DNA from: Candidatus Altimarinota bacterium
GTDB taxonomy: Bacteria; Patescibacteriota; Gracilibacteria; BD1-5; UBA6164
Direction: 5' to 3'
DNA length: 64,000 bases
Assembly: GCA_019454605.1 (NCBI GenBank)
Contig: JACFNZ010000001.1
Coordinates: forward strand, 186,001-250,000
Shown: one piece after another, positions 11,563-39,573 of the stretch
Layout of the letters: every line of letters begins with the position of its first letter
How positions within the stretch are numbered: the stretch's first letter is position 1
Translations under genes and position numbers: made by a program
Notes under the pieces: model-generated
Told to the model about the DNA's origin: nothing
Database searches by the model: none
The model's input: the letters and a program-made list of their open reading frames with translations, nothing else

Positions 11563-14503
<2,941 letters not shown>

Positions 14504-14546
14504 TTTCTATTACAATTATTATTTTTTTTGCTATTAACAATTTAAT

Positions 14547-14575
14547 GTTAACTAACTTTAATTATTCAGATTATT
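14547..14575 (-). other. 23S precursor processing stem, 5' arm
   Basis: Partner of 11511-11540 across the 23S gene. Confidence 0.8.
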
Positions 14576-14591
14576 TTAAAGAACAAATAAA

Positions 14592-14610
14592 TGAAATTTT
14601 AGAAGAAAAT
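14592..14610 (-). other. 16S precursor processing stem, 3' arm
   Basis: These 19 bases are the exact complement of 16160-16178 on the other side of 16S. The 16S-23S spacer (about 14504-14640) contains only these stems and no tRNA gene. Confidence 0.8.
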
Positions 14611-14640
14611 AAAGAAAAAATTAAACTTAAGGATATATAT

Positions 14641-16118
<1,478 letters not shown>

Positions 16119-25455: not shown

Positions 25456-27852
25456 CTAGTTAAAAAATGGAAGTGTAAAATTATCTACTCTAAAGTCAAT
25501 TAAATCTGATTTTTTTATTTCCTCTAAATCTTCTAGTCATATTTTTCAAAAATATAACTCTTTTAAATTTCATGAATTAAAAACAAAATTATTAATTTCT
25601 AAAAGTCAATTAATATAAATAATATCTTTTAGAAAAACATATTTTTTAGAAGTATTTTTTAATCATCTCTTTAGTCTAATTAAATAGTTACCAACTACCC
25701 TATAGTCATTATTATAATAATCTAAAAGCTCTTTAACAAAAAAATTATAATTATGGTTTAATGCAAAATCTATTAAATAATATCTTTCTGCAGAAGTGTA
25801 GTATTTTGAATATGTATTTTTTATAAATCTATTTTGATTATAAATAGCAAGTCACTCTTCTGTTTGTAAGTAATTTCAAGTTCAAGACTTAAAAATTTCA
25901 TATTTTAATTTTTCTCAATTTAGCTTTCTCAAATAATGTGTTTCAACTTCATGTGCTATAACTGATCTAATTTCATTTTTTCAAACTTGCGATGTTTGTC
26001 TTACAAATAAATTATTTCATTTTATAGAAAATCTAGATCAAGTTTCTTTTTCAATAACTCACAAATTCATATTATAAATATGATTATATTTATTTATTTC
26101 ATGCTTTATATTATCTATAGTCAAAAATTCTTTTTCTTTTTTTATTTTATCTCTTGTTTTTAAAATATCTAAAGAGTAATCAAGTCAAGGGTTTGTTATA
26201 GTTCAATAAAGTAGTTTATTATATTTATTTAATCATTCAATATCTTGTTTTTCAAAAGATGAAATAAATCATATTTTATTAAAAATTTCTTCTTTTTTCC
26301 TTTTATAAATATTTGAAAGTGGTATATCTGGAATTTCAATTTTTTCTATTTTTTTGAAAAACTCACTTAAATCAATACTAATTGGATTATATTCAAGTTG
26401 AGGAATATAGGTTCATTTTGATTCTATAAACTTAAGTCTTTCTGATAAAATATTTTTTGGTGTGATTATTTTTAAGATATTTAATTTTTTATCAACTGAC
26501 ATTATTTCTTTATCTATTTTTAGTAATTGGTCTTCATATGATTTTAAAATAACTATGTTTTTTTCTTTTAATATCGGATTTTTTAAATCTTTTGGTAATT
26601 CATTGTCTTTGTATTTAAATGGATCTATTAAAAAATGATATAATGCTTCTTTTCATAATATAATATGTGATGTATCAAGGCATTTAACATAAAATTTTAT
26701 ACTTCTTGATTCTCACAATATATTTATTTTCAATTTAACTATATCATTTTTAATTTTTTCTTGTGGATAATTTAATGTAGTAGTTAAATAATTAAAATCT
26801 ATATAACTATTTGGTTTATTTGATTTAGTTTCTCAAATAGTTTTAAAAATATTATCATTATAGTGAATTTCAATATATTCTTTATTTCAAACAACCTTCT
26901 TTCAAGAAATATTTTTAATTTGTTCTTCTATATCTCATCAAAATAAATCTTTAGCAAGTCTAACTCATTTTTCTACAGAATTAACTTTTATATTTGAAAC
27001 TTTTTTTAATCTCTCAAGTAAAGGGATTTTGTTTGCAACTTGTACTTCAAGTCCAGGACGAACATTCATTTCAAGCAAAAGAGGTCAAAAAGTGTCATCT
27101 AAAACTATATCACATCAAACATATCAAACATTTGTCACTTGTTGAACTTTGACAGCAAGTTTTAATATATCATCCCAATGAGGAATTTCAATTCATCTCA
27201 CATCTCAAATTCAAGGAACTGATTTAATCATTTTTTTAAATTGAGTTATATATGTTATTTTTCAACTTCATATATCTATTCAAAGCCCACAAGCTCACAT
27301 GTGTAAATTTGCTTTTCATTTTGAGTTTTTAGTTGGAACTCTAAGCATAGCAATAACAGGAACTGAGTTAAAAACAATAACTCTTATATCAGGAAGTCAA
27401 TATTTTCAAAGTAATTCTATTGATTTATCTAAAGATAGTTTTCTTTCAAAAATAATTTTATCTCTAGATCAAGATAATGAAAAAAATCAATCAAGTATAT
27501 CGCTTAAATGTTTTTTTAAATCTTTAATTGAAAAAACTTGATTATCATTTGAGATAAAATTTCATTTATCATCTTTTTTTATAAAAATAATAATTCATTT
27601 TCATCAATAACCTGCATTTGGTTTTACAACAAAAGGAAGAGGAAGAGAATTTAAATCAAAGTCTTCTAAGTCTTTATGTGTTTTTAAAACAGCTATACTT
27701 TCTGAAACTTTTACTCATTTTGAAGATAGAAACTCTTTTGTTTTAATTTTAGAATCTCGGAGTTTTTTAGACAATGAATCATTATATTCTCAAATATAAT
27801 TAAGATTCCTTGCATTTTGTCATAAAATTCAATAGTTTTTTAAAAACCACAT
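25456..27852 (-). CDS. ATP-grasp ligase fused to DUF1704 (MATCAP-like) metallopeptidase
   Basis: 798 aa. The N-terminal half resembles alpha-L-glutamate-ligase-like (RimK-type) proteins: I-L-G-Q-N-A-R-N-L-N-Y-I, K-T-K-E-F-L, P-F-V-V-K-P-N-A-G-Y-G-G-K-G and L-L-L-E-M-N-V-R-P-G-L. The C-terminal half (about 470-780) has I-A-H-E-V-E-T-H-Y-L-R (about residue 629), an HExxxH-type zinc motif, and T-E-E-G-L-A-I-Y about 30 residues later, as in DUF1704/QEGLA proteins related to tubulin carboxypeptidase MATCAP. A plausible reading is one protein that both adds and removes amino acids at peptide ends. Substrate unknown. Codon 27777-27779 is CGA. The gene is divergent from the muramidase gene. Confidence 0.85.
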
Positions 27853-27906: not shown

Positions 27907-27935
27907 TTGCAATTATTTTTAAAATATGGTAAAAT
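27907..27935 (+). promoter_or_regulatory. Promoter with extended -10 before the muramidase gene
   Basis: TTGCAA at 27907-27912, 17-base spacer, TAAAAT at 27930-27935 preceded by TATGG (extended -10). The 11-base string TATGGTAAAAT also precedes the gene at 36761. Confidence 0.6.
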
Positions 27936-27968: not shown

Positions 27969-28919
27969 ATGACAATTGAAGTGAAAAATAATGATTTAGA
28001 AAATGTTGAAAAAGAAATAATTTCAACAAAAAATAATCTTGATAGATTAAAATATCAAAATAACAATCTACTTGATTCTCAAGTAAAAGAACTTGAAGAT
28101 AAACTAAAAGAGCTTGAGATAAAAAAACAATCAATAATTTTAGAAACCCAAAAAAAGTTATGAACTCAAAAAATGGATTCAGAGCAAAAAGAAAATATTT
28201 GAGAAAAATTACAAAATTCTAATTTAGATTCAAAGCAAAAAAATCAAGTAAATGAAGCAATAAAATGAAATAATTTTGATTTTTCAAAAATAGAATCTGG
28301 AATAATTTGAATTATTTTAGCAATACTTGAAAGTTTTTGATTTTGATTTAAAAACTATGCTGAAATTGATAGTAAAACTTGAGAAGAAATAAAAAGTTCT
28401 AAAGTAAATTATGAAAAAATAACCTCAAAAGAAAAAAAAGAATTTGTAAAAGAAGCTTCCATATATGCAAAAGAAATTGAAAAAATTTATGGAATACCTT
28501 ATGAAGTATCTATTGCTCAAGCTATTTTAGAATCATGATGGTGACAATCAAGTCTTGCTAAAAAATACTGAAATTATTTTGGAATAAAAGCTTTTGGAAA
28601 TAAAGAATTTGTTACTATGTCAACTCAAGAAGAAGTGAATTGAAAAATGGTAACAATTAAAGATTGATTTAGAAAATTTAAAAATATGAAAGAATCTTTT
28701 TATTGATATGCTGAATTTTTAACTCAAAATCCAAGATATAAAAATGCTTTTGCCTATTGATATGATATAAACCCTAAACCTCCACACTATCCTCCAAGCT
28801 ATAAATGACTTGATAGAGAAAAGTTTGCAAAAGAACTATCTAAAGCTTGATATGCAACTGATTCAAAATATGCCTCAAAAGTTATTTGACTTTGAGATAA
28901 AATTGAAGAAATAGCATAA
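27969..28919 (+). CDS. Membrane-anchored GH73-like N-acetylglucosaminidase
   Basis: 316 aa. The N-terminal 65 residues form a charged coiled coil, followed by a glycine/Phe-rich hydrophobic helix (about 112-130). The C-terminal domain (about 155-315) matches the FlgJ/LytG glucosaminidase (GH73) fold: I-A-Q-A-I-L-E-S-G-W-G-Q-S with the likely catalytic Glu (about 187), Y-W-N-Y-F-G-I-K-A and Y-A-T-D-S-K-Y-A-S-K-V at the end. It cleaves peptidoglycan glycan strands. Code 11 reads only the coiled coil (64 aa). As the first gene of a novel plus-strand cluster it suggests wall remodelling or attack on a neighbour's wall. The topology places the enzyme outside. Confidence 0.88.
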
Positions 28920-28943
28920 TTATTGTAAAATACAAAAAACTAT

Positions 28944-28955
28944 GATAAAATAAAA
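28944..28955 (+). promoter_or_regulatory. Possible -10 region TATGATAAAAT
   Basis: A variant of the extended -10 motif found at 27925 and 36717 lies about 25 bases before the ATG at 28980. No clear -35. Confidence 0.35.
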
Positions 28956-28979
28956 CAAATATAAATTAATTATAAAAAT

Positions 28980-31853
28980 ATGACAAATCCTGAAAAAAAT
29001 AATTCTCCTAAAGAAACTCAACCAAACAATAATAATTTACCTATTTCTACTGAAGTTCAAAGCTCTCAAGAGTGAATAAATCTTTCTAAAAACACTAAAG
29101 AAAATTTAGATAAACTAAAAAAAGAGCTCGAAAACTGAAAAGTAACTCCTGAATTTATAAGATCTTTTCTAGAAGTATTACCAAAATTAGACCAAAGCAA
29201 TAAAGCTTTTATTTTAGGTGGGGTTTTTTCATCTTTAAATAAAATGTGAATTTCTATAAAAGAAATTAAAAATTGACAAATTTCTTTGCAAAGGCCTAAA
29301 AATATGTTAATTGATTGAGAAAATCAAAAAGCAACTGATGATGAAATAGTTAATTTTGAAAATTTATTAAATAGTTGATTAAGAAATCAAAACTTTACTT
29401 TAAATGATTTACAAAATTCACTTCTTGCTAGAACTCTTCCATCTATGGATAAATTTAAACAAAATTCACTAGACAAATCTCTTTCAACAACTGATTATGC
29501 TATTTATTTACATAAAAAATATAATATTTCTTTTCAAAAAATTGACTGAAGTGATGACAATAAAAGTAAAACAAAAGAGTATTTTTCTCAAATACATTTT
29601 GAAGATGAAAATAAATATAAACAATTTAAAGCAACAATTTGAAATGCAATTAAAGAAAATCAAGCAGAGAAAGAATTTCTTTTATCCTTTTATGATAATC
29701 TTTATTATAATAAGTGAGAAAATATAGATGATAATAGCTTTGAAAGCATTTTAAAAACTTGAAAAGAAAATGAAGTCCAAATATTTCAAGAATTAAATCA
29801 GTTATCAACTGATGAAAAACTAGCGTTATGAATACACTCTAAAAATACTCAAGAAGAAATGGCAAGAAAATGGACTAATAATCCTATTGAAGCTATTACT
29901 GATAGTATAAAAAACGGATGACTTCATTTATGATTAATTTTTTGAATTATTTGAGCTATTTTTTGGTGAAAAAAATGATTTTTTTGATGAATTTTTGCCT
30001 GATTATGAATTGCATGATGATGATTAGAAGCTATTACAAGTATGTTTAATAAAGATAGAAAAAAATGAGAAAAACCTTCAGCTAGTTCAAATAGTGATAA
30101 ACCAAGAAATAAAGGAGAAAGTAAAAATGAAAATGTTAATTTATATAAAAAATATGAATGAGTTGTTTCTTGAATATCTACAGATAGTAATGAAAAAAAA
30201 GATTATTTAGAAGTTTGGGAAACTCTATCAAAAAATGAAAGTTTAATGAACTCTAAGATTTTAGAAATTCCTATTAATTGAAGTACTGAAGAAAAAATGC
30301 AATTTTTTGTAAATAATTGTTGATTTTATTACTGATTTTTAATACATAATCAAGATAAAATAAAGGAAATATATGAAGCTATTTTAAATAAAAGAAAAAA
30401 TAGTATTTGAGATTATAATGAAAATGAAACATTAAAAGAATATTTAGAGAGGACGAGTGGAAAAGAAGAAAAAGAAAAAAAAGATGACACTACTTCAGCT
30501 TGAAGTACAGTAAATAATGCAATTGATAATAATAATTCTTGAAATTGATTTTCTATTGAAAATTTAAAAAGAGAGTGATATAGTGATTTATACATACTAT
30601 CAAGATGAATTGAATTATGATATACTTTTACAAAAACTCTTCCATCATGGGTAAAACCATCTTGAAGTATGTGAATAATTTGAAGTACTTGGTATGTTAT
30701 AAAAACACCGTTAAGCATGCAAACATATAAATATCTAGCTAATACTTGAGGATATTTTATGACTTGATGATTACATAATTCAATGAATAATTGAAATTTA
30801 GGTAAAATAACTGAGGGTACTTGAAAATGATTAAATTGGTTATGAAAATGAGCTTGAAAAATTCTTTGAACAGAATTAATGATAGAAAAATCAAAATTAA
30901 ATAAACATTTAGATAATTTAAAATTAAATCTAAGTTGAAATGAAGTTGAAATAAATAAATTAAATTCAAAAATACAAATACTTGAGAAATTAGAAACAGA
31001 AATGAAACGATGAAATATTTGAGAAGTTAAAAGATTATTAAGAGAATATAGAACTAATTTTGATTCTAACTTTAGATTAAAAAATAAATGACGAAAAGAT
31101 GTTGAACTAAAAGCACATTTAGATAAATTTAAACTAGAAGAAGATAAAATTAATAAAATTAAATCAGATTTAGAAGCAAAAATTACAGAGTTAGAAAATA
31201 AATCAAAAACAGAAAAAGATCCAAAAAAAATTGAAAAATATAAAAAAGAGGTTGAAGAATTAGCAAAAAAATCAAATATTGAAATAGAAGAAATTAACAA
31301 AAAAGCTTGAATTTCTTTATCCAAACTAGATGAATGAACTATAAAAAGTATAGCTACTCAATCAAAATTTGTTGATAATATAGTAAAATTTAATTGATGA
31401 GCAGAAAAATTTTTAAATAAATTTAATTGAGTTTGATGAAAGGCTTTTATTTGAGTTGGTATAATTTCATTAATATATAATTGAAGAGAGTGACTATGAA
31501 GTATTTGGGATAATTGATTTTCAAATGAAAATAAAAATGATGCTATTGACCTTGGAATTTGATTTATTCCTATAATTTGATGATTACATGACTTAAAAAT
31601 AGCTTGGGATTGAGAAGATTTAAATGATAGAAAATTAAGCTCTTGAGAAAGACTCACAAGAACTGCATTTTGAATAGTATGACTTATACCTTGAGCTTGA
31701 ATATTAGCAAAATGAGTATTTAAATGAAGTGTTGCTGTATCAAAATGAGTTAATATAGCTATACAAACTACAAATATAGTTTGAAAATGACTAACATATT
31801 CTATGTTATGATTTTCTATAGCTACTGCTACTAAAGAAATAATTCTTGATTAA
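28980..31853 (+). CDS. Large coiled-coil protein with PT-TG-like C-terminal region
   Basis: 957 aa. A hydrophilic N-terminal region (1-310) is followed by a glycine-rich hydrophobic hairpin (about 310-350: G-L-H-L-G-L-I-F-G-I-I-G then G-I-F-A-G-L-G-I-A-G-G-G), a mixed region (about 380-600), a long lysine/glutamate coiled coil (about 640-800) and a C-terminal segment (about 820-957). That segment holds D-L-G-I-G-F-I-P-I-I-G-G-L-H-D and L-S-S-G-E-R-L-T-R, then I-P-G-A-G-I-L-A-K-G. This resembles the pre-toxin TG (PT-TG) domain that sits before toxin domains in polymorphic toxins, but the protein ends there with no toxin. Unrecognised as a whole. I infer a surface or secreted structural component. 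Confidence 0.8.
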
Positions 31854-31871
31854 TTAAATAACAAAAAAAAT

Positions 31872-33623
31872 ATGTCAGAAAAATTAACTATATCATCTGA
31901 AAGTGATTTAAGAAGCAATCTATGAATTGATGAAACTATTTCATTTGAAGTTTTTAAAAATCCAATAGAAGCTACTAAAGAAGAATTAAATAAACTAAAA
32001 GATGAAATATCTAAATTAACAGAATCTACTAGAAAAACTGAAATTATTAATGGATTTTTAAAAGAAAAACAAGAAACTGTAGACCAAACTAAAACAGATA
32101 TTTGAAATTTATTAAAAACTGGAGGAGTTGCTTGAATTGCTTGATGACTTTTAAATAGCTTACAAGACACAATAAATGAAGACGATTGAAAGGAGTGAGT
32201 TGAGAAAGTTTTATCTTTATGAGAAAAACTAACTGCTTGGTGGGATAAAATTACTTTATCTTTTCAAAGTCTTATGTGGGAAAAATTTCCATCATTAGCC
32301 AAAATGTTTTGAATAGAAGACCCTAGTGAAAGATTAAAACAAGAAGCTAAAGAAAAAAAGCAAAAAGCAGAAGAAAACGCAAAAGAGCAAGAAAAAAAAG
32401 TAGCAGAAACTATAAAACCTTGATATAATTTTTATACAAAAATATATTTTAAACTATTTAAATGAAGCAATGAACTTGACTCAGATTTTAAAGTAGATAA
32501 AAATCTTGAGTGAGAAGTTGCAAGATGTGTTTTTGAACATACTAAATTTAAAGATTTAAAATATAATGAATTAAATTCAAATAATGCTCAAATTATATTA
32601 AAAAGTATTAAATGAAATTTAAAATTAGATAAACAATATAGTGATGAAGTTTTGTTAAAATATGTTAATTTAGTATTTAAAAGTATTTCATCTTGAGAAG
32701 AAACAACTAAAACTTGAACTTGGTTTAAAAGTGATAAAACTTGAAAAATAGAAAGATGAAACACATTTTTAAACAAACACTTTAAAAATATAAAACAAGA
32801 AAATCCATCTATGAGAGAATTGTTTTCTAACTTAAATAATTTATGAGATTTTGAATTATTTTGAGAAGATAGTCAATTTGATATAGATTCTTTAAAAGAA
32901 TCTTTAAAATGAAAAACTCAATCATTATATGATTCTTGAGTAACTAATATTGCAAATTTAAAAGAAAGTGATTTTAGTAAATTAAAGTGATGATTAAGCA
33001 GTAAATTACAAAATTTATGAGATTTTCAATTAATTTCAAATAATATCTTAAAATCAAGTGATTCTCTTACATTAAATAACAATTTCGAAGCAAATTGAGT
33101 TGAAAATAATCCAAAAAATAAAGATGGTTTAGTGTCTGATTTTATAGGAGATAATGAAAAATGACTTATAAAATATTGAAATGATTTATATAACAATATA
33201 CTAAAAAGTTGAAGTTTAATTGACTCAAGTAAAAATATAAAAAAAGAGGATTTAACTTTAAAAAAAGTATATGCTATGTATTTGATGACTTGATGAGAAA
33301 CTAATTTAGAAAAATTATCTACTATGCAAAAATTAAACTTAACATTTAGTATAATGACTTCTCATTGAAATGCTTGAGATATATGAGCATGACTTTGAAA
33401 TATGGTTGAAAAAATTATGAATAATGAAATAACTATAGATAGTGATGTAAAAAATCTACTTCTATCAATTTGAAGTGCTAGTATAAATATGATAAAAGAT
33501 GCTTGAAAATTTATGTGAGAAATTGGTTGGTGATTTGCACAAAAACAACCTGTTTTAGCTACTTGAATATTAGTAATACTTTTAAAATTTCCATTTTTTG
33601 TTAAAAGACATTCTTTAATTTAA
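31872..33623 (+). CDS. Coiled-coil protein with glycine-rich hydrophobic segments
   Basis: 583 aa, not recognised. A charged N-terminus is followed by a short coiled coil (about 35-75), a glycine-rich hydrophobic stretch G-G-V-A-G-I-A-G-G-L-L (about 80-92), then P-S-L-A-K-M-F-G-I-E-D-P and a lysine/glutamate helix. The middle is a soluble domain. The C-terminus has a hydrophobic helix V-L-A-T-G-I-L-V-I-L-L-K-F-P (about 565-580) and a short basic tail. The segment near residue 135 resembles one in the next protein (F-L-A-M-F-L-G-L-N-G-D-N-P), so the two may be distant paralogs. It starts 18 bases after the preceding stop. Confidence 0.75.
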
Positions 33624-33670
33624 AAATTAAATAAAAAAATAAAAACAAATTTATTTATTAAATAAAAACT

Positions 33671-35899
33671 ATGACTATAGAAAACAGTCCTAGATTAGAA
33701 AGTAATCCTACTTTTAAAAACCCTGAGGAATTACAAAATGAGGAAAAAAATAAAATTTTAAAATTAGTTTTAGAAAAATATTGAGTTGATTTAAAAGATT
33801 TTAAAAAAGATTTAAATGAATTTAATAATATGTTTTTAACATATCAAAGAACAAAGCCTTTAGAAGCTATTGAGTTAGATAAAAAAGCAGAAATTACTTA
33901 TCAAAACTATTTAAAAGAACAAATAAATTCTTGAAATACTGAAAAAATTGTAAATATTGATAATTTAACTGCTTCAATAAATAATGAAAGATTAACTTCT
34001 TTAAAAAATGAGTTAGATAAACCATTAAATGAAGCTTTAAATAAGTATGATTTTTTAAATAACCAAAGTAAAGAATTTATAAAACTTGGATTTTTAAATT
34101 CTTTAGTAAAATCCCCTATAAATAAAATATGAGAATCTATTATTTGATGAGTTTGAAGTTTTATTTGAAATTTAGAAACCTGAAAATTAGATAATATTTT
34201 AGATAGTCTAAGTTCATCTCCTGTTGATTCTTGAAGAGTGTTGTCCATGAAAGAAGAGTTTATAAAACATTTAGGAACATATACTTCAAAACTTGATGAA
34301 ATTAATCAAAAATTTTTAAAAGAAGATGGTTTAAAATGATTAACTAAAGATCAAAAACAAAATATTATTTCAAATATTGATTGGTTTAGAGATCCTTGAT
34401 TAATAGAAAATTGACCTCAAAGTTTAGATATTTCAAAAATAGATTTTACAAAAACAACTAAAAATGAAGCTCCTTTAGATTCAGAAAAATTATCTAAATA
34501 TTTAGTTTCATCAAGAGAAAAATTTGTTCAATTATGAAATAAATTAAATTTATGAGATAAGGCTTCAGATGCATTATATAATGTGTTATGAAATTCTGGA
34601 AAATTATCAGAAGTGTCACAAAAATTAGTTGATATTTTACTTAAAGTCCCTATTTTGTGAAAATTTTTAGCAATGTTTTTATGATTAAATTGAGATAATC
34701 CTTTTGAAGAATTAAAAGAAAATACTAAAAATTTTAAGATTTTAAAATGATTTAAAGATCTTTGAGTCAGTAAAGATGAGAAGTGAAATATAATTCCTTG
34801 AAGCGATATATTTAAAGAAACTGATTTAAGTCGATTAAATTTTAATAGTTTAAAAGATGAATTAAAAGAAATTAATTGATTTTTTAATACAAGTAATGAA
34901 AAAGATTATAAAAGTTTATGGATAAGTGCTTTTAGTGAAAATTGAATTTGAGAAACAGAACCAAAGTTAAAGCTAAAGATAGATAAAAAAATAGATGATA
35001 AAAAACTAACAACTCAAGACTTTAAAGAAATTTTAAAAACATGAATTGATGAGTTAAAAGAGCAAAAAGAAAAGAAATCTCAAGAAGATACACTTAAAAA
35101 AGCTAATGATGAAACTCAAAAAAAACAAAAAGAAATAGATGAAAATAATACTGCTCTTTCTACAAAACAATTAGCATTAAATATATTAAGACAAAATAAG
35201 GGAGACAATGGGAAAGATATTATTTCAAATATTTGAAATTTATGAGATTATAATGATTTTAAAAAAATAACTATATGAGAAATTTTAAACAATAATGATT
35301 TAGATAATTTACTAAAAACTAAAATTTGAGAAAGTGATTACCAAAAAATAAGTGAAGAAGTAAAAAATTGACTTAAAAAAAGTATTGAAATTGTTAAAGA
35401 ATATTTAAATGGAAAATCAGTAAATACAAATATTTCATTAAAAGAGCTTTTAGAAAATAGTGAGTTTTTAAATTTTTTAAATGAAAAAAATAAATCTCTA
35501 AAAACTGATCTAACAAAATTGGAAAGTGAAAAAAAGTTTTTTTGAGAAAAAGAGAAAAAAATAGAGTTTTCTAAAAAAGTAGAAAGTATTTTAAATAATC
35601 TAACAACAAAAACAAGTTTAAAAGATTGAATAATAATAAAATGAGATAAAAAAATAAAATTTAATGATGATAAAAATGAACTACAAATCTGAGAAGAAAA
35701 ATATAGTTTAAGTTTAAAAGATAAAAGTATAAAAATAAAAGATATTAAAATAGACCATGAAAATGTATATTTAGAATGACAAAAAAATATTTTTTCTTGA
35801 GAAGAAATACATAAAAAAGATTTGTTTATAAAATGAATTGGATTGCTTGTTCAAAATTGAGAATATAAAAATAATAAACTTGAAATTGTAAAAATTTAA
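33671..35899 (+). CDS. Large coiled-coil protein of the same cluster
   Basis: 742 aa, not recognised. The N-terminal half is helical. A glycine-rich segment K-I-G-E-S-I-I-G-G-V-G-S-F-I-G-N (about 155-172) and a hydrophobic helix V-P-I-L-G-K-F-L-A-M-F-L-G (about 327-340) are followed by F-E-E-L-K-E-N-T-K, similar to the preceding protein. A lysine/glutamine coiled coil (about 455-490) and another (about 605-640) follow. The C-terminal 100 residues look like a beta-rich domain (I-I-I-K-G-D-K-K-I, L-Q-I-G-E-E-K-Y-S-L). No signal peptide. It probably works with its neighbours. Confidence 0.75.
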
Positions 35900-35942
35900 A
35901 AAATAAATATAATAAAAACTATTAATTAATAATTAAATAAAT

Positions 35943-36437
35943 ATGTGATTTTTTGATACATTAAAAACAAATGCATTAAAAGCTAAAGATAAAGCAGTAG
36001 AATTAAAAAATAAATGAGTTGACTTTACTGCAAATCAAATTAGTAAATCTAGTTTAATGATAAAAGATACTACAGAACTTGAAGCTTTTATTTTAAAATC
36101 AGCAAATAAAACTATAACAAAAGAAGATTGAGAAGAAAAAACTTTTATTAAAAGAGTTATTGTTTTAGTGTGAGACTCTAAAGAAAACTTTTTAAAAGAA
36201 ATTATGCTATCTATACCAGTTTTACTTACTAAATCTTTTTCTCAAAGTGTGCAATTAAAAATAATTGATAGTTTTGAGAAAAAAGTTGATTTAGAAAAAT
36301 ATAACTTAGAAAGTTTTCCTTGTCTAATTGTATTTGAAAATAAAGAAATTTATAAAATAATATCTTGAGAAGAAAATATAAAAAAAGTTGTAAACAGCCT
36401 AAGTTTAGATATAAATAAAGAAATAGAAGAAATTTAA
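35943..36437 (+). CDS. Thioredoxin-fold-like small protein
   Basis: 164 aa. The middle holds a beta-strand R-V-I-V-L-V-G-D-S (about 72-80), and the C-terminal part has L-E-S-F-P-C-L-I-V-F-E-N-K-E-I-Y-K-I-I-S-G. The cis-Pro position, strand-turn-strand and final helix mirror the end of thioredoxin folds (F-P-T-I-x-I-F-K-N-G). No CxxC is present, so it would be a non-redox scaffold or adaptor. The assignment is structural inference. Position 2 is TGA, immediately after the ATG. Code 11 therefore finds no gene here. Confidence 0.6.
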
Positions 36438-36454
36438 AAATTAATTTTAATATT

Positions 36455-36667
36455 ATGGAAATAATTGAAATTTTATATATAGTTTTAATATTTTTTACAG
36501 TTATAATTTGAAGTTTAATATCTATATTATTGTATAAATTATTAAAAATAATTTCAGTTATAACTGAAATTATTGAAGTATATAATGAAATAAAGCAAAT
36601 AATTTCCTTTTATAATCAAATACCTAAAGTATTTTTTGAAAGTATTAAAAAAATATTTAAAAAATAA
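36455..36667 (+). CDS. Small single-helix membrane protein
   Basis: 70 aa. One membrane helix (about residues 5-27) is followed by an amphipathic Ile/Glu-rich helix and a lysine tail. It follows the thioredoxin-fold-like gene by 17 bases and is the last gene before a terminator. Function unknown. It could be an anchor for the cluster's soluble proteins. Confidence 0.65.
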
Positions 36668-36695
36668 GCTCTTAAAAAAGAGCTTATTTTTTAAA
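36664..36695 (+). terminator. Terminator inside the novel cluster
   Basis: AAATAAGCTCTT stem with AAAA loop and AAGAGCTTATTT, followed by T run. Separates the first six genes from the last two. Confidence 0.8.
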
Positions 36696-36698
36696 TAT

Positions 36699-36727
36699 TT
36701 GATTTATTTTTTATAATATGGTAAAAT
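36699..36727 (+). promoter_or_regulatory. Promoter with extended -10 before the peptidase-like gene
   Basis: TTGATT at 36699-36704, 17-base spacer, TAAAAT at 36722-36727 preceded by TATGG. Same TATGGTAAAAT as at 27925. Confidence 0.6.
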
Positions 36728-36760
36728 AAATTGAAAAATTATATTTTAACAAACTATAAT

Positions 36761-37732
36761 ATGGTGTCATTATTAGATTTTTGAGATCAAATAAGCTTTA
36801 CAACTGAAAATCCTATTTCTAAAAATGATTTATTAATTACAAAAATTAATAATTTATTAAAATGAGTATGAAATAATCAAGATATACAAAGTTATTTTAA
36901 AGCTAATTTTGGTAAAGAATTAGATAAAAATAATAAAAATGAACTATTAAAAGTATTTTCAGATTTATATTTTAAAAAATATCCTCAAACATTAACTAAA
37001 TACTTAAAAGATTTAAACAAGCCTATTGATTTTAATTCAAGAAAAGAAATATATAAAACATTTAAAGATGATAACTATGTTTGAAGTGCAAGACAAAATA
37101 TAGAACTACATAAATATTTAATTTGAAAATTTGAGTGAGAAAAAATATTACAAGAAGTTAAAATCACAAAAGAAACTCAAAGTAATTTATGAAAATTAGA
37201 TTTAGATATTGAAAACTGAATTTGAAATATAGGTAATATAAAAAAAGAGAATAATAATAATAATAATGAAATACCAAATGAAGAAATATTATTAAATCCA
37301 GAAAAAATAAAATCAAAACCTTATAGAGTTAGCCCAAGATGAACAACAATGTGTTCTTTTACAGCAAGAAAAAATCTAGAAAATTTATGAATAAATGATT
37401 ACATGCAGTGAAATGCTAAAGCACTAACAAGACAGTTAGAAAAAAATTGAGCTCCTAAGTTTAATGATTTTGATAGTATAAATAGCCACTTAAATAGAGA
37501 AGATTGAAATGTCTTTGATATTTACCCAAAAACTAAAAATTGACATAGATCAATATGCTTTGCAGGAAAATGAGCAAATTGAGAAAAAGAATTTTTTGTG
37601 CTTGACCCATATTATTCTTGATGAAAAAGCACTTCTCCAGTCCCCTTAAATGAATATATAAATAACAATAATTTTTGATGAATAGTTGTTAATACTCAAA
37701 ACTATAATGTTTCAAATGAAAAATTTACTTAA
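36761..37732 (+). CDS. Putative papain-like cysteine peptidase
   Basis: 323 aa, not matched to a named family. A helical N-terminal half (1-150) leads through an Asn-rich linker (about 165-172) to a C-terminal domain. There G-T-T-M-C-S-F-T-A-R-K-N-L (Cys about 200, starting a helix), G-H-R-S-I-C-F-A-G (His about 261) and F-F-V-L-D-P-Y-Y-S (Asp about 283) appear in the Cys-His-Asp order and spacing of papain-fold peptidases such as C39 or NlpC relatives. It could process a neighbour's surface protein or wall peptide. The catalytic assignment is inference from spacing. It has its own promoter and is followed 19 bases later by a small gene. Confidence 0.6.
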
Positions 37733-37751
37733 TTATAACTTAATTAATATT

Positions 37752-38213
37752 ATGGAAAATATAAAAGAAAATAATTTATCTTCTATTGAAGATAAATTAA
37801 ATAAATTAGATCAAAAATTAGAAAAATTAAACAATGAAAATTATAAATTCTCTTACGAAAAAGATAATAATTGATTATTTTATCCTAAAATAAATTGAGA
37901 AAAATTAGAAATACCATTTGAGAATTGAAAGGATTTAATAGAGGCTTTAGTATTTTTAGAGTATTTAATGAAATTTTATTTAAGTTTATGAAATAAATGA
38001 AAGCTCTATGTAAAGGAAGATATTTGGACTAAATGAGAGTTAGTTCCTGCTTTAGATATATATGTTGATGATAATAATATACTAATTCCTGATACTATGT
38101 TTTTAAGAGCAGAGACTATTACAAAAAAATTTAAAATAATAGATTCAAGAGATAAAATGATTGCTTGAGAAATTGCTGATTTTTTAAATAAAGTATTAAA
38201 TATTTCAAAATAA
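37752..38213 (+). CDS. Small soluble protein, partner of peptidase-like gene
   Basis: 153 aa, not recognised. An N-terminal coiled coil (about residues 10-35) is followed by a compact domain with L-I-E-A-L-V-F-L-E-Y-L-M-K-F and a C-terminal L-V-P-A-L-D-I-Y-V-D segment. No membrane helix. It is the last gene of the unit and could be a chaperone, inhibitor or immunity-like partner of the preceding peptidase candidate. This is inference from the pairing alone. Confidence 0.65.
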
Positions 38214-38283: not shown

Positions 38284-39573
38284 ATGAAACAAAAACTTCC
38301 TGTGTATGGTATGCATTGTAAATCTTGTGAATTATTACTTGACTCAAAACTTAGTGAAATATCTTGAGTAAAAGTAAAAAAAGTATCATTTAAAGATAAT
38401 TTTGTAGAATTTGAAATAGATGATTTAAAAAATTTAAATAGTGTTAGAAAAACTATTTCTTCTTTATGATATGATTTGGAAAAAAAGAAAGTTAAGAAAA
38501 ATAATATTTTTGATTATATAATTATATTTTTAATATTTATAATTTTTTGAATAATTTATAAATTATTTTGAGATAATAATTTATTTAGTAGTTTTTGAAA
38601 TATTGCAAATCCTAGTTTAATAATAGTTTTACTTATATGAGTTGTAGCATCTTTGTCAACATGTTTAGCTGTAACTTGATGAATTGTTATATGATTTTCG
38701 AAATATTTAGATAATTCTAAAGGGAATTTATCACATTTTTTTATACAAATAAAATTTCATATTTGAAGAATATTATGATTTGCTATTTGATGAGGAATTT
38801 TAGGGTTAATTTGATGAACATTGTGAAGTATAGTTATGTTAAATAAACTATTATTGTTAATAACTTGATGATTTATGCTTTATATGTGATTGCATTTATT
38901 ACAAATCATCCCATCAATAAAATTTACTTTACCAAAATTTATTTGAAATAAAGTATTAAATATAAAAAACCCTGCTTTTGCTCCAATAGTATGAGCTTTA
39001 ACTTTTTTCTTGCCTTGTTGATTTACTCAAAGCATGCAAATGTATGCTGTTAGTTCTTGATGATTTATATCTTGAGCTTTAATTATGGGAGCATTTGCAC
39101 TATGAACTATGCCTGTTTTATTTTTAGTTGGATTTTGATCTAGCTATTTTAAAGATAAAAATATAAAATATATAAATATGGTTATGTGAGTAATTGTTAT
39201 TTATTTTTGAATATTTATGCTTAGTTGACTTGCAAACCTAATTTCATTTAAAAAAACTCCTTCTCAAACAAATCAAAATATAGTAAATGAAAATATATCT
39301 TATGAACAAAAAACTATTTTACATAATTGATGGAGTTTGTGAGAAAAAGAAATTTATTTAAAAGCATGATGATACTATAAATTAAACATAATTCCAACAA
39401 AAAATTGAACTTGATGTATGAGTACTTTATTAATACCTTGAATTGATGAAACTCCACATAAAATAATAGCTTGAGAACCTATCTCTATACTTATAAATGA
39501 TGCAAAACCTTGAAAATATAATATAGTTTGTTCAACTATGTGAATGAAACAATGAGAAATAATAATAAATTAA
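38284..39573 (+). CDS. HMA + TauE/DsbD-like + cupredoxin-like copper-handling membrane protein
   Basis: 429 aa. An N-terminal heavy-metal-associated domain has the G-M-H-C-K-S-C-E motif (about residues 10-16). Six to seven membrane helices (about 80-310) resemble the sulfite exporter TauE/UreH-DsbD family, with P-C-G-F-T-Q-S-M-Q in one loop. The C-terminal domain (about 330-429) looks like a one-domain cupredoxin: G-T-G-C-M-S-T-L, then Y-N-I-V-C-S-T-M-G-M. It most likely moves or sequesters copper at the cell surface. This three-part layout is known from other bacteria as TauE/SafE proteins with an HMA domain. Regulated by an upstream palindrome. Confidence 0.82.

What the first reader, a model, noticed from the sequence alone, without database searches (positions are those of the whole stretch)
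27969..38213. Ten-kilobase cluster of unrecognised envelope or contact proteins
Eight consecutive plus-strand genes hold a GH73-like muramidase, three large glycine-rich coiled-coil/membrane proteins, a thioredoxin-fold-like protein, a small membrane protein, a Cys-His-Asp peptidase candidate and a partner. Two share an identical extended -10 promoter. Code-11 annotation shows only fragments here, so the cluster would have been missed. For an epibiont or predator lineage, a muramidase plus pre-toxin-like protein suggests a device acting on a host cell or the own envelope.
Basis: partly seen in the sequence, partly recalled or inferred. Interest (0 to 1): 0.85.

Follow-up and report, generated by a model that had tools for sequence, protein, structure and literature searches.

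The report
Fast-evolving envelope gene locus in Gracilibacteria
Four of the eight reported genes belong to a previously undescribed gene set, kept at one chromosomal spot by most relatives of this tiny (probably host-dependent) bacterium but changing unusually fast, and it probably works at the cell envelope; the other four are unrelated neighbours.

Summary
The eight ORFs are real code-25 genes: TGA aligns with Gly, never Trp, in homologs. They are not one cluster.

Core: A–D, 27969–35899. A is a GH73 glucosaminidase (Pfam E=6e-33). B, C and D are large, signal-less, helix-rich proteins with embedded hydrophobic segments and no annotated family. Homologous B/C/D genes sit beside FtsX, usually running to QueA, in most Gracilibacteria of this family (29 of 33 FtsX loci have such large proteins) and occur at other loci in a second family, repeatedly next to peptidoglycan-binding or -cleaving genes. 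They diverge about twice as fast as neighbours. In one relative, two alleles of B are near-identical in the hydrophobic hairpin (dN 0.008) but carry a hypervariable block (dN 0.37) just downstream.

E–F is a separate conserved pair found elsewhere in relatives. G (Cys-His-Asp protein) and H lie behind a terminator and are not part of the conserved locus.

The pre-toxin (PT-TG) match is borderline and no toxin domain or known immunity gene follows. Folds were uninformative. Best reading: a lineage-specific peptidoglycan-linked envelope or contact apparatus; function untested.

The parts
27969..28919 (+). A: N-terminal coiled-coil-like part, hydrophobic/amphipathic segment (residues 108-126), C-terminal GH73 glucosaminidase domain (166-311); no signal peptide
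   Evidence: Pfam PF01832 E=5.7e-33; orthologs next to FtsX and B in G001 and G003
28980..31853 (+). B: 957-aa protein; N-terminal domain, glycine-rich hydrophobic hairpin (about 310-352), block corresponding to the hypervariable region (about 428-515), long helical part, C-terminal hydrophobic region with weak PT-TG
   Evidence: B homologs at the FtsX locus; hairpin by hydropathy; AF2 mean pLDDT 52; PT-TG 2e-5 for the C-terminal part
31872..33623 (+). C: 583-aa protein with ITGGET-like motif and C-terminal hydrophobic tail with basic end
   Evidence: 55.6% identical in G001; profile found in 19 of 60 relatives in two families
33671..35899 (+). D: 742-aa helical protein with conserved hydrophobic segment LGKFLAxFLG (about 319-340)
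   Evidence: profile in 10 of 77 genomes of the order; AF2 mean pLDDT 66, pTM 0.52, no PDB or viral fold match
35943..36437 (+). E: weakly thioredoxin-like protein without CxxC; separate conserved pair with F
   Evidence: 36 of 60 relatives, at loci away from the FtsX cluster
36455..36667 (+). F: 70-aa membrane protein paired with E
   Evidence: adjacent to E in G001, G002, G003, G012 and G020
36652..36699 (+). strong AT-rich inverted repeat, probable terminator between F and G
   Evidence: 6 terminator-like hits, all of this stem, against 0.8 expected
36761..37732 (+). G: papain-like Cys-His-Asp candidate (C208/H272/D292, numbered from the TTG at 36731); probable ATG start 36761
   Evidence: invariant triad in six homologs at other loci; no Pfam or PDB match
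37752..38213 (+). H: 153-aa protein of unknown function, probable ATG start 37752
   Evidence: no homolog in the loci examined
27925..27935 (+). extended -10 TATGGTAAAAT upstream of A; the same 11-mer at 36717-36727 upstream of G, variant at 28941-28951 upstream of B

Best explanation
A-D is the local version of a Gracilibacteria-specific envelope locus. B, C and D are helix-rich proteins without Sec signals that I propose associate with the cytoplasmic membrane through a hairpin (B), a C-terminal hydrophobic tail (C) and an amphipathic or hydrophobic helix (D), and together form a scaffold. The scaffold recruits a peptidoglycan-active partner (GH73 glucosaminidase A here; PG_binding_1 or LysM proteins in relatives) that opens or grips the wall where the complex sits. 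The domain just behind B's hairpin is diversified by recombination and/or selection, as expected if it meets a variable partner such as a host surface or phage. Shown: genes, homology, synteny, linkage to peptidoglycan genes, excess divergence, hypervariable block. Inferred: membrane association, complex formation, wall opening, exposure of the variable domain, role in host contact.
For: Retention: 29 of 33 same-family genomes have one or more large proteins on the 5' side of FtsX, mostly related to B, C or D by BLAST or profile comparison. D-B-C or B-C order occurs at other loci in a second family. Peptidoglycan link in several lineages: GH73 in three g1 genomes, each with only two GH73 genes; LysM-like proteins in G001 and G003; PG_binding_1 in the first gene of the G044 (5e-9) and G046 (9e-12) clusters, weaker in G040 and G045, and inside c59 proteins of G007 and G004, although these genomes hold only 1-7 detectable PG_binding_1 matches. 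Fast evolution: A, B and D at 0.15-0.77 bits/aa against flank medians of 1.3-1.5 within the genus. B alleles in G003: dN/dS 0.008/0.10 in the hairpin region against 0.365/0.41 in the adjacent block. Each of B, C, D is single-copy in the own genome.
Against: No localisation, expression or structural evidence. Topology calls rest on hydropathy only. No Sec signal explains how A reaches the wall. AF2 models are weak. Coiled-coil proteins often diverge quickly for neutral reasons. C is nearly as conserved with G001 as its flanks are (1.12 bits/aa). The hypervariable block rests on one pair of contigs in one genome whose estimated contamination is 6%. Nothing here shows host contact.
Confidence: 0.45

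Rival explanations
1. Own-envelope module: B-C-D is a division or elongation scaffold that works with FtsX, which regulates peptidoglycan hydrolases in other bacteria. A is the hydrolase under FtsX control, and no host contact is involved.
For: Divergent adjacency to FtsX and proximity to EF-Tu in most family members; GH73 directly beside FtsX in G001 and G003; retained in small genomes.
Against: In the window genome FtsX has moved to another contig while A-D stayed together. In the second family no such cluster lies beside FtsX. Division proteins rarely carry a hypervariable block.
Confidence: 0.25
2. Polymorphic-toxin-like secreted effectors: B carries a conserved N-terminus, a pre-toxin TG module and exchangeable C-termini, and is delivered to competitors or hosts.
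For: PT-TG at 2e-5 in B and 6e-6 in a relative; C-termini of B differ between G001/G006 and window/G003 types while N-termini match.
Against: Only about 30 residues follow PT-TG, so there is no toxin domain. No recognised immunity gene; the next gene C is a conserved large protein. In a six-frame search PT-TG reaches E<=0.001 in 2 of 60 relatives, and the own genome does not reach it. No match to a known defence family.
Confidence: 0.1
3. B, C and D are substrates or unrecognised parts of the Patescibacteria type IV secretion system, and A is its VirB1-like wall opener.
For: VirB4-like ATPase (P-loop_TraG 2e-23) and a VirD4-like gene (my reading of the sequence) exist in the genome; Gracilibacteria lack recognisable VirB6 and have scattered T4SS genes (PMC12102498); the proteins lack Sec signals.
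Against: The cluster is about 195 kb from the virB4-like gene on the same contig and its proteins match no T4SS profile. A T4CP-like gene near the cluster was noticed only in G001 (L027).
Confidence: 0.12
4. Remnant of a prophage or mobile element.
For: A matches phage endolysin families; a transposase gene interrupts one relative's locus.
Against: No relatives of B or D in 2.9 million viral contigs, no viral fold match, fixed chromosomal position, single copy, no neighbouring structural phage genes.
Confidence: 0.03

Closest known systems
GH73 glucosaminidases (FlgJ C-terminal domain, GsmA, phage endolysins)
   Same: A carries the full catalytic domain above the Pfam cut-off
   Different: A has an N-terminal coiled-coil-like part and an internal hydrophobic segment, no Sec signal, and sits with B-C-D
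FtsEX-regulated peptidoglycan hydrolases (PcsB, CwlO, EnvC; from general knowledge)
   Same: FtsX is the divergent neighbour of a coiled-coil hydrolase in G001 and G003
   Different: hydrolase is GH73; FtsX not adjacent in the window genome; B-C-D have no counterpart there
VirB1-type wall-opening enzymes of type IV secretion systems (PMC12102498)
   Same: a dedicated peptidoglycan enzyme next to envelope proteins
   Different: not near the virB4-like gene; B-C-D are not T4SS proteins by profile
Giant membrane proteins of Vampirococcus and other CPR predators (PMC8080830)
   Same: large, membrane-associated, no known domains, proposed host contact
   Different: B-C-D have no signal peptides and form a syntenic set conserved in Gracilibacteria
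Polymorphic toxins with PT-TG
   Same: weak PT-TG region and exchangeable B C-termini
   Different: no toxin domain and no known immunity protein follow

Membership tests
GH73 glucosaminidase (gene A) | PF01832 above curated cut-off | tested here: met
   114.6 bits against a cut-off of 30.2, profile 3-120 of 123
GH73 glucosaminidase (gene A) | Sec signal or known export route (usual for wall-acting members) | tested here: not met
   no N-terminal hydrophobic segment; one internal segment at 108-126
Polymorphic toxin with PT-TG (gene B) | PT-TG domain | tested here: inconclusive
   22.5 bits (whole protein) and 24.8 bits (C-terminal part) against a cut-off of 23.5
Polymorphic toxin with PT-TG (gene B) | toxin domain after PT-TG | tested here: not met
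   PT-TG ends at residue 923 of 957; no further domain
Polymorphic toxin with PT-TG (gene B) | small immunity gene downstream | tested here: not met
   next gene is the conserved 583-aa C; no defence or immunity family
Thioredoxin (gene E) | profile above cut-off and CxxC site | tested here: not met
   15.8 bits against 23.5; sequence has FPCLIVF but no CxxC
Papain-like peptidase, C39 or CHAP type (gene G) | Cys-His-Asp order, conserved in homologs | tested here: met
   invariant C208, H272, D292 in six homologs
Papain-like peptidase, C39 or CHAP type (gene G) | match to a known peptidase family | tested here: not met
   no Pfam match in six members, no PDB sequence relative; fold not predicted
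FtsEX-hydrolase module | FtsX beside the hydrolase | tested here: inconclusive
   met in G001 and G003, not in the window genome
Type IV secretion system component | profile match or virB4 neighbourhood | tested here: not met
   no T4SS family in A-H; virB4-like gene about 195 kb away
Prophage | viral homologs or phage structural neighbours | tested here: not met
   neighbours are chromosomal

The most novel reading that the evidence does not exclude
B-C-D is a new, signal-less, peptidoglycan-anchored cell-contact machine of Gracilibacteria, kept at one chromosomal locus, whose exposed B domain diversifies within populations as hosts or phages change.
Probability: 0.2. Interest if true: 0.85.

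Novelty: new variant of a known kind. Interest (0 to 1): 0.52.

Why it matters
How Gracilibacteria attach to or feed on other cells is unknown. Most family members keep this locus despite genomes of about 1–1.5 Mb, its proteins match no annotated family, and part of B varies between alleles as contact proteins do. It gives three named candidate proteins, a fixed chromosomal address to look at in any Gracilibacteria genome, and a specific domain to test. Automatic annotation with the standard code would show only fragments here.

Tried and rejected
EF-hand-like pattern in D: rejected, not above shuffled expectation. A shared 'hydrophobic helix ending in FG' as a genome-wide export motif: only A and D among the cluster proteins stood out in the genome scan, dropped. 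Fold searches with D gave nothing in PDB or viral libraries; B was too poorly modelled to search. G against PDB and Pfam: nothing. Profile of B's C-terminus across 287 genomes of the phylum: only three weak hits besides the own genome, so the set looks restricted to this order at this sensitivity. Viral collections: nothing for B or D.

Full report
OBSERVATION. The eight plus-strand ORFs exist at the stated coordinates and are open only if TGA is read as Gly. In pairwise alignments with homologs TGA positions fall on Gly (C: 31 of 40; B: 36 of 61 and 51 of 71; D: 15–24 of 30–35) and never on Trp. The window is G000:C6:186001–250000 of a 1.0-Mb genome. Nearly all named relatives in its family are labelled Gracilibacteria, for example the closed genome 28_42_T64.

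WHAT IS KNOWN IN EACH PROTEIN. A: GH73 glucosaminidase (5.7e-33). B: only a borderline PT-TG region at residues 855–923 (1.1e-4 whole protein; 2.1e-5 for the C-terminal part; three of six homologs match). C, D, F, G and H: no family; E: sub-threshold thioredoxin (15.8 bits against 23.5), no CxxC. G: homologs at other loci share an invariant Cys208, His272 and Asp292; the spacing and the H...DPY pattern recall C39-type peptidases (my reading, not a test), but no profile matched.

NOT ONE CLUSTER. E and F are a conserved adjacent pair in G001, G002, G003, G012 and G020, away from the B-C-D locus; E has homologs in 36 of 60 relatives. G homologs are also elsewhere. H has no homolog in the loci examined. 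A strong inverted repeat at 36652–36699 follows F. G and H most likely start at ATG 36761 and 37752: the -10 element upstream of G then stands 33 bases from the start, as it does for A (sequence). The shared 11-mer upstream of A and G is therefore real, but TATGNTAWAAT is a general promoter form in this genome (25 of 85 sites upstream of genes, 2.8 expected).

THE CORE LOCUS. B, C and D homologs were found by single sequences and profiles. Many lie between FtsX (with EF-Tu beyond it) and QueA. Using FtsX as an anchor I fetched this place from the family. In 29 of 33 genomes at least one large ORF (650–1520 aa, one cut short by a contig end) stands on the 5' side of FtsX, mostly B followed by C, D or a related protein and then QueA (my tally). 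Exceptions are G012, G013, G033 and the window genome, where FtsX lies on contig C8 and A–D stand beside the ATP-grasp/MATCAP gene, as in G001 and G003. Profile comparisons connect many of the divergent B's (up to 99.8% probability), C with C-like and D with c28/D33 proteins; two genomes' large proteins (G015, G030) stayed unclassified. In a second family the set occurs at other places: D–484 aa–B–C in G054, a PG_binding_1 gene then D-B-C in G040, a PG_binding_1 gene then split B and C in G045. B, C and D are single-copy in the own genome.

PEPTIDOGLYCAN LINK. GH73 stands next to B in three genomes of the genus, each with only two GH73 genes (one shared event). A LysM-like protein lies between B and C in G001 and G003 (LysM E=0.016, below cut-off; G003 by sequence). 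PG_binding_1 is above cut-off in the first gene of the G044 and G046 clusters (5e-9, 9e-12), and weaker in G040 (3e-4), G045 (0.014), and the c59 proteins of G007 and G004 (1e-3, 3e-3). These genomes hold 1 to 7 PG_binding_1 matches each, so repeated placement in the cluster is unlikely by chance; the lineages are not all independent.

FAST AND LOCALISED CHANGE. Within the genus, A, B and D score 0.15–0.77 bits per residue against flank medians of 1.3–1.5; C is closer to its flanks (1.12 in G001). In G003 two contigs carry overlapping B sequences with 91% DNA identity over 1.9 kb. One runs FtsX-A-B, the other continues from B into the 249-aa protein, LysM protein and C, so they look like two alleles in one population rather than distant paralogs. 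The hairpin region has dN 0.008 and dS 0.10; residues 421–507 have dN 0.365 and dS 0.41; the rest 0.04–0.05 and 0.11–0.16. Raised dS suggests recombination; a dN/dS near 0.9 suggests relaxed or diversifying selection on that block. This is one pair in one genome with 6% estimated contamination.

ARCHITECTURE. Sec-like N-termini were not seen in B, C or D. B has a glycine-rich hairpin, C a C-terminal hydrophobic tail with basic end, D a conserved LGKFLAxFLG segment, A an internal segment that is weaker in homologs. Hydropathy alone does not fix topology. AF2 models are helical and uncertain (D 66, B 52 mean pLDDT), with no fold relatives for D.

INTERPRETATION. The best-supported statement is that A–D is the local form of a conserved, fast-evolving, peptidoglycan-linked locus specific to this order. 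That it is a membrane-bound scaffold that recruits a wall enzyme, and that the variable block meets a host or phage, are inferences. A toxin system fails two defining features. A type IV secretion link is possible, since a VirB4-like gene exists and Gracilibacteria T4SS genes are scattered (PMC12102498), but there is no positional support. I found no description of this locus in the literature searched; Sieber et al. (PMC6851277) describe a different hypervariable gene in 28_42_T64.

Noticed in passing
window 25456-27852 (-): Fusion of a sugar-transfer ATP-grasp domain (1e-58) with a MATCAP-type metallopeptidase domain (2e-23); conserved beside FtsX or A in many relatives.
   Followed up: partly
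window 38284-39573 (+): HMA domain + DsbD_2-type transmembrane region + weak cupredoxin-like C-terminus in one protein.
   Followed up: no
L029 1-2463 and L030 2-2314 (G003): Two apparent alleles of B differ mainly in one 87-residue block (dN 0.365 against 0.008 in the hairpin region); assembly of G003 breaks at this gene.
   Followed up: yes
G000:C6:87496-90321 and G000:C10:38318-41656 (outside the window): Two more large proteins with no clear Sec signal, EF-hand-like and internal hydrophobic stretches, no Pfam family above cut-off.
   Followed up: partly
window 35943-36667: E-F: conserved pair of a thioredoxin-like protein without CxxC and a 70-aa membrane protein in Gracilibacteria, function unknown.
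   Followed up: partly
G000 genome-wide: Extended -10 element TATGNTAWAAT is enriched about ninefold upstream of genes.
   Followed up: yes
window 12000-16000: GC of about 43-45% in a 20% GC genome, without long ORFs; probably rRNA genes.
   Followed up: no
L060 7936-17383 (G236): Three adjacent large signal-less proteins, one with a weak PT-TG-like region, in another family of the class; possibly an analogous locus.
   Followed up: partly
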